From assembly GCA_021778845.1 (NCBI GenBank), contig JAJYBU010000012.1:1-64000 (forward strand): DNA of 64,000 nt, given 5' to 3'. Shown piece after piece: positions 30,519 to 30,829 of this stretch (positions within the stretch are counted from its first letter, which is position 1; each line of letters starts with the position of its first letter). The position numbers were made by a program, and so were the translations under genes. The stretch is from Acidobacteriota bacterium (GTDB lineage Bacteria; Acidobacteriota; Terriglobia; Terriglobales; Acidobacteriaceae). The notes under the pieces were generated by a model. It searched no databases. It was given only the letters and a program-made list of their open reading frames with translations, and was not told the DNA's origin.

Positions 30519-30829
30519 CCCCAAAATAAATCCCTCAAAAACAGCCCAAAATCCGCATGTCAACCCCCGAACCACACCCCAAACCCACAAAACCCTTATA
30601 AACAAAGGCGATTTCTCTTCAACAAGCCTGGCATAATCACCCCCACCCACCCGCTACAATTTAATCAGTCAAGAAAAAGCAGTAACCGGCCTCAACACCC
30701 TGTGCCGTTAACTCATTTCGATGCAATAGGATACCCGCAACTCCCCTGAAAAGAATACTTTACGCGCAAAAACGCAATAACCCGCGTATAGTGAACACTT
30801 TGAGCCAAAAAGTATGGGGGGGAGGGGGG
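30519..30829 (+). promoter_or_regulatory. Composite leader element, copy A (upstream of scpB)
   Basis: TGTCAA 30558, GGCGATT 30607, TGGCATA 30629, TACAAT 30655, CCCGCAACTCCCCTGAAAAGAATACTTT 30734-30761, AAAAAGTATGGGGGGGAGGGGGG 30807-30829. Confidence 0.75.

What the first reader, a model, noticed from the sequence alone, without database searches (positions are those of the whole stretch)
30519..30829. Composite leader element, copy A: ordered motif set upstream of scpB
After the hexamer tract and before scpB lies TGTCAA (30558), GGCGATT (30607), TGGCATAAT (30629), TACAAT (30655), then CCCGCAACTCCCCTGAAAAGAATACTTT and AAAAAGTATGGGGGGGAGGGGGG. The same order recurs before hscB and serA (see copies B and C). 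Spacings are identical in all three: GRCGATT to TGGCATA 22 nt, TGGCATA to TAMAAT 26 nt, and TGTCAA to end of TAMAAT 103/103/102 nt. Fixed spacing with divergent filler suggests a constrained functional module rather than decaying mobile DNA. One hypothesis is an extended -10 promoter (TGGCATAAT/TGGCATAGT) plus a structured 5' leader ending in a G-rich segment. I know of no named family for it.
Basis: partly seen in the sequence, partly recalled or inferred. Interest (0 to 1): 0.88.

Follow-up and report, generated by a model that had tools for sequence, protein, structure and literature searches.

The report
Scattered promoter repeat, not a gene leader
The element is one of about 38 copies in this soil bacterium (Granulicella group) of a conserved, apparently non-coding promoter unit that sits beside genes rather than being their leader, always points the same way relative to the chromosome's strand bias, and in sister genera drives homing-endonuclease-like genes.

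Summary
The motif set and spacings are real and far above chance. A model of the 115-bp "head" finds about 37 clear copies in this genome, 20-40 in several other Granulicella-group genomes and weaker ones in at least 10 further Acidobacteriaceae genera. The leader interpretation fails. scpB, hscB and serA each keep their own promoter just before the start codon, also in relatives that lack the element, and no stem covaries. About half of all copies abut or face the 3' end of an opposing gene. The head behaves like a promoter: an invariant TANNNT -10 box, a near-invariant +1 A, and 50 constrained columns at fixed spacing, while filler is near chance even between orthologous copies. This indicates selection on each resident copy. 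In 113 of 116 loci its sense strand is the C-rich (lagging) strand. In a sister genus all six PDDEXK_5 (homing-endonuclease family) genes lie directly behind this head plus an intrinsic terminator; Granulicella-group genomes have no PDDEXK_5. Best reading: an ORF-less, promoter-bearing composite repeat related to a promoter-attenuator-endonuclease cassette, now kept for an unidentified non-coding role. Transcription itself is untested.

The parts
30558..30568 (+). copy A: distal block TGTCAACCCCC (about -109 to -99 from predicted +1)
   Evidence: near-invariant in 28 aligned copies; coordinates
30607..30614 (+). copy A: GGCGATTT block (about -60)
30629..30637 (+). copy A: TGGCATAAT block (about -38 to -30), lineage-specific sequence in other genomes
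30655..30660 (+). copy A: predicted -10 box TACAAT
   Evidence: T, A and last T invariant in A1
30667..30667 (+). copy A: predicted transcription start (A of CAG)
   Evidence: near-invariant A seven bases after the -10; inference, not mapped
30729..30829 (+). copy A: tail units (GGATACCCGCAAC..., GAATACTTTACGCGC..., GAACACTTTGAGCCAAAAAGTA) ending in G-tract
   Evidence: recurs in nearly all genome copies
30816..30829 (+). copy A: terminal G-tract GGGGGGGAGGGGGG
30929..30953 (+). scpB's own promoter/leader box GATTGATACACTCAACGCTGCACCC, not part of the element
   Evidence: conserved directly before scpB in relatives without the element
46930..47040 (+). copy B head: TGTCAA to GGAAGTAG, -10 TACAAT 47027-47032
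47057..47084 (+). copy B: intrinsic-terminator-like hairpin CCCGGCAGCCGCCGGGCCTTCGTTTTTT, about 18 nt after predicted +1
   Evidence: sequence
47113..47183 (+). copy B tail: GGACTACCACAAGTCC, GACTTTAGGCCCAAAAGT, GGGGGGAGG
47210..47229 (+). hscB's own promoter GGGTACTCTAACAACACATG, not part of the element
   Evidence: box next to the start conserved in relatives that lack the element there
57382..57491 (-). copy C head: TGTCAA 57491 to TTTAACTAG 57382, -10 TAAAAT 57395-57390
   Evidence: orthologous copy in G001 (L299)
57181..57293 (-). copy C tail units and G-tract
57038..57058 (-). serA's own promoter AAGTACACTAGTAGGGTTGCG, not part of the element
   Evidence: conserved in relatives without the element

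Best explanation
Copies A, B and C belong to a dispersed, promoter-bearing, non-coding composite repeat of Acidobacteriaceae. The 115-bp head is a DNA promoter module: upstream protein-binding blocks at about -105, -60 and -35, an AT-rich UP-like stretch, a TANNNT -10 box and a +1 A. It fires into a short segment, which in some lineages and copies is closed at once by an intrinsic terminator, followed by tail units and a G-tract. In sister genera the same head plus terminator is the control region of multicopy free-standing PDDEXK_5 (homing-endonuclease family) genes. The Granulicella-group units are therefore most likely the ORF-less branch of a promoter-attenuator-endonuclease cassette that spread into gene ends. 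They have since been kept, copy by copy, by selection on the promoter, served by a trans-acting factor that differs between lineages. Shown: anatomy, copy number, in-place constraint, orientation bias, linkage to PDDEXK_5, absence as a gene leader. Inferred: promoter activity, short transcript, spread by homing, existence of the trans factor.
For: Copy number and distribution. Promoter signature in 28 copies; no covariation. Blocks 0.89 identical between orthologous G000/G001 copies while filler is 0.435, against 0.38 expected from composition and 0.36-0.40 between unrelated copies, so no homogenisation and constraint at each copy. Head places a gene start 12 nt after the AAT of the -10 region in L138. 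Immediate hairpin terminators with different stems per copy, mostly in G015. All 6 PDDEXK_5 genes of G032 and at least 7 of 21 in G033 have the head upstream, 0 in reversed controls; Pfam confirms PDDEXK_5. Presence/absence differs at orthologous scpB, hscB and serA loci. Whole-set absence in several clades on the serA tree suggests dependence on a trans factor.
Against: No Granulicella-group genome searched has PDDEXK_5, so the cassette is not complete there and descent from it is inferred from the shared head only. PDDEXK_5 units lack the G-tract tail seen here. No clean empty site, terminal repeat or target duplication could be defined. Purifying selection on each copy is unusual for a dead or parasitic repeat. 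No expression data exist.
Confidence: 0.6

Rival explanations
1. The heads are a host regulon: a common activator or sigma factor drives some 35 short non-coding RNAs (and a few genes), and PDDEXK_5 genes in other genera were simply recruited to the same promoter.
For: In-place selection on each copy; heads driving a VOC-family gene and a Cys-rich peptide gene; lineage-wide change of the -35 block; absence of the whole set in some clades.
Against: Transcribed segments share no conserved sequence or structure in the window genome, and presence/absence at orthologous loci is fluid, which is odd for an old regulon.
Confidence: 0.22
2. The orientation is the function: head-on promoters run against the replication fork toward a G-tract and act as fork- or chromosome-organising sites.
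For: 113 of 116 copies have the C-rich strand as sense, 108 of 108 where |skew|>0.1; in the closed genome G007 nine of ten copies point toward dnaA; the G-tract recurs at the fork-facing end.
Against: The same bias could come from biased insertion or from C-rich blocks surviving better on the C-rich strand. Spacing along the chromosome is uneven, and many same-genus genomes lack the element.
Confidence: 0.1
3. It is a structured 5' leader or riboswitch of the downstream genes.
For: About half of the copies lie upstream of a co-oriented gene.
Against: scpB, hscB and serA keep their own promoters; about half the copies face an opposing gene end; no covariation; copy A folds like its shuffles, z -0.10; no Rfam match.
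Confidence: 0.03
4. It is only a decaying mobile repeat without present function.
For: Multicopy, intergenic, patchy between species, filled with other repeats.
Against: Constraint at 50 of 122 columns persists at orthologous sites while filler is randomised.
Confidence: 0.05

Closest known systems
BOX elements of Streptococcus (boxA-boxB(n)-boxC)
   Same: Composite interspersed repeat with fixed ends and a variable number of internal units, enriched between convergent genes, partly conserved in position between genomes, can alter neighbouring expression (PMC3049150).
   Different: No sequence relation expected or tested; here the 5' end is a 115-bp promoter under selection, the 3' end is a G-tract, and orientation follows strand bias.
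Correia elements and other MITEs
   Same: Short, intergenic, multicopy; some carry promoters (own knowledge; general MITE properties in PMC3049150).
   Different: No terminal inverted repeat or target duplication found; relatives carry an endonuclease gene, not a transposase.
Free-standing homing endonuclease genes (PDDEXK_5, Pfam PF11645, family of I-Ssp6803I)
   Same: In sister genera the same head and an intrinsic terminator lie directly upstream of multicopy PDDEXK_5 genes. Free-standing homing endonucleases in many copies are known, for example in phage T4 (PMC3943268).
   Different: Window genome has the control region only, without the gene, plus a tail of its own.
Intrinsic-terminator attenuators
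   Same: Promoter, short leader, hairpin and T-run before a gene in the PDDEXK_5 units.
   Different: In Granulicella-group copies usually no gene follows the terminator, and many copies in the window genome lack the terminator.

Membership tests
structured leader RNA / riboswitch | lies in the 5' UTR of the gene it controls | tested here: not met
   genes have own promoters downstream of the element; half of the copies face opposing genes
structured leader RNA / riboswitch | conserved secondary structure with compensatory changes | tested here: not met
   0 compensatory pairs in head and tail alignments; copy A z -0.10
structured leader RNA / riboswitch | matches a described RNA family | tested here: not met
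   no Rfam hit on any copy tested
bacterial promoter of the sigma-70 type | -10 hexamer with invariant T-12, A-11, T-7 and purine +1 | tested here: met
   A1 alignment; gene start shortly downstream in L138
bacterial promoter of the sigma-70 type | canonical -35 TTGACA at 17 +/- 1 bp | tested here: not met
   conserved block is TGGCATA at -38 to -32; activator or UP-like element inferred
bacterial promoter of the sigma-70 type | transcription starts there in vivo | not testable with these tools
   no transcriptome data held for these strains
MITE | multicopy short non-coding intergenic repeat with presence/absence variation | tested here: met
MITE | terminal inverted repeats and target-site duplication | tested here: inconclusive
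   none seen; empty sites too diverged to define the junctions
MITE | parent transposon sharing the ends | tested here: inconclusive
   relatives that share the head carry PDDEXK_5, not a transposase, but no exhaustive search for a transposase was made
free-standing homing endonuclease cassette | encodes a homing-endonuclease-family protein | tested here: not met
   none in the window genome or its genus; met in G032 and G033
free-standing homing endonuclease cassette | shares the control region of such cassettes | tested here: met
   6 of 6 PDDEXK_5 genes in G032 and at least 7 of 21 in G033
BOX-like composite repeat | fixed ends with variable tandem units between | tested here: met
   sequence relation to BOX itself was not tested

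The most novel reading that the evidence does not exclude
A chromosome-wide set of some 35 host-maintained, non-coding promoters, all aimed against the replication fork and ending in a G-tract, has been derived from the control region of homing-endonuclease genes and put to use in organising replication, convergent transcription or gene-end insulation.
Probability: 0.15. Interest if true: 0.85.

Novelty: new variant of a known kind. Interest (0 to 1): 0.62.

Why it matters
It would be an undescribed repeat family of abundant soil bacteria whose unit of conservation is a promoter at fixed spacing, with strong in-place selection but no obvious product. The link to PDDEXK_5 genes offers a route from selfish endonuclease cassettes to dispersed regulatory DNA, and the near-perfect strand orientation makes a role in replication-transcription traffic directly testable.

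Tried and rejected
An early gene finder was biased by the strong strand composition; conclusions on opposing genes rest instead on stop-to-stop frames. Rfam: no match. tRNA/tmRNA cargo in L143 and other loci: none. Leader and riboswitch idea rejected. REP/RAYT and IS200/IS605 origin considered because of the orientation bias and hairpins; no constant GTAG foot or hairpin pair at both ends was seen, not pursued. First terminator scan too strict, replaced by folding. First PDDEXK_5 protein query used wrong coordinates, repeated. Plasmid search: no match. Viral contig scans gave no answer. Literature searches on repeats, GC skew and start sites in these genera returned nothing describing the element.

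Full report
Observation. The reported motifs, coordinates and spacings are correct. TGGCATARTN{14,22}TAMAAT occurs three times in the window and never in 100 shuffles. A sequence-only model of the head (R1, from 28 copies) finds 37 matches at E<=1e-4 in this genome of 79 contigs. Other genomes of the same genus carry 20-40 (G001, G005, G013, G015, G016, G025), and many carry none by this model. A looser pattern, TGTCAASCCCC, 68-98 free bases, then STANNNTNNAANNAG, finds the element in 13 of 61 genomes, all of the same genus, with no control match anywhere. The model also finds it at lower score in at least 10 further genera of the family.

Anatomy. The head runs from TGTCAA(G)CCCCC through AAAACCCC..AACACT, GGCGATTT, an AT-rich TATATTTTCAAAA stretch, TTGGCATAGTTACCCC and GCTACAAT to TTTAACTAG or AGAAGTAG. 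In the TACAAT block the first T, the A and the last T are invariant and the A seven bases later is nearly so, which is the signature of a -10 box and start site. It changes by lineage: TTGGCATA in the window group, TTGCATGTT in G015, TTGGCGTA in G016, AACACTTT or AACATGTT in G007. After the start come variable filler, often other repeats, then tail units built on GAATAYYTTACCCGCAACC and GGACTGCCACAAGTCC, a last unit ACTTT-N7-AAAGT, and a G-tract. In 7 of 10 G015 copies, and in some G016, G001, G025 and window-genome copies, a hairpin with a T-run after it (in G015 and G016 also an A-run before it) follows the start at once, with a different stem in each copy.

It is not a gene leader. The scpB gene in the window has its own box, TTGATACACTCAACGCTGCACCC, directly before ATG. 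The same box precedes scpB in relatives where the upstream gene ends some 60 bases earlier and no element exists. Of 17 genomes with hscB only the window genome has the element there, and promoter-like boxes sit next to the start in the others. The serA locus has the element in the window genome and G001, a diverged one in G007 and a weak match in G014; the TACACT box of serA itself is conserved throughout the relatives read. Of 112 copies with a G-tract, 56 have an opposing open frame of at least 600 nt ending within 100 nt, 32 of them within 12 nt. The alignments show no compensatory pair, copy A's transcript folds no better than shuffles, and Rfam has no match.

Selection on each copy. At least 16 G000 copies have an orthologous copy at the same locus in G001. 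In these pairs the 50 constrained head columns are 0.89 identical and the filler columns 0.435, against 0.38 expected from composition. Unrelated copies within a genome are no more alike in the filler (0.36-0.40), so copies have not been homogenised by gene conversion. The blocks have thus been held at individual sites after the filler was randomised. On a serA tree (several branches weakly supported) element-bearing genomes are spread over the genus and whole clades lack it, most simply explained by loss of the set together with a partner in trans; this is inference.

Orientation. The window has GC skew of -0.18 to -0.35 over 52 kb, on genes of both strands, and changes sign at 52 kb. Copies A and B (+) and C (-) follow the sign. 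Over all fetched loci of the genus the sense strand is the C-rich strand in 113 of 116, and in 108 of 108 where |skew| exceeds 0.1. In the closed genome G007, dnaA lies at 2.14 Mb and nine of ten copies point toward it, that is, against the fork. Biased insertion, better survival on the C-rich strand, or function could each produce this.

Relation to PDDEXK_5. In 7 of 20 head loci from other genera a PDDEXK_5-like gene (PF11645) follows, usually after an intrinsic terminator (two representatives confirmed by Pfam). A search for PF11645 in 61 genomes found it in five, none in the window's genus. In G032 all six genes, and in G033 at least seven of 21, have the head, with none in reversed controls. 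PF11645 includes the homing endonuclease I-Ssp6803I (own knowledge); free-standing homing endonucleases in many copies are known (PMC3943268). The simplest reading is that the head and attenuator are the control region of such cassettes and that the window's units are their ORF-less relatives, with a tail that the PDDEXK_5 units do not have.

Verdict. Real, and not described in the sources searched, but not a leader RNA. The best name is a promoter-bearing composite repeat related to PDDEXK_5 cassettes. What selection maintains in the window genome is unresolved; expression, the trans factor and the meaning of the orientation are the open points.

Noticed in passing
window 1-64000: Extreme GC skew (-0.18 to -0.35) over 52 kb regardless of gene strand, switching to +0.05 to +0.18 at about 52 kb next to dnaK; G001 shows a mosaic of strongly skewed and neutral domains.
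   Followed up: partly
window 30000-30450: Long TTGCCY/TTGCTC hexamer tract between the phosphate permease gene and copy A, absent from the same gap in relatives.
   Followed up: no
L003, L105, L154, L418, L421, L422, L085: A small Cys/His protein family (CxH...CGSPALRG..C..H, no Pfam match; 20 homologues) begins near the tail of element copies in several genera.
   Followed up: partly
L094 (G000:C23): A diverged head precedes a Cys-rich repetitive peptide gene (MNESCKNDACKNGTCQHDACQ...).
   Followed up: no
window 57003-57267: The listed serA frame starts inside copy C's tail; relatives and the promoter at 57058-57038 place the true start (TTG, LKIVLAEKVS) downstream.
   Followed up: partly
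L008, L016, L024, L025, L026, L030, L104: Other interspersed repeats fill the element's middle, e.g. GCCGTCCGCGCAGGAC and GTCATTCCGTAGCGAAGCGGAGGAATCTGC.
   Followed up: no
G000 contigs C3 and C13 ends: Contigs begin or end within or near element G-tracts, so the assembly probably breaks there and copy counts are slight underestimates.
   Followed up: no
L354-L362 (G007): In G007 the tail is a highly conserved pair of hairpins (CAGAATCAGCCACTTAC...GTAAGTCGCTGATTCTG and GATACCTCC...GGTATC), unlike the window genome's tail.
   Followed up: partly
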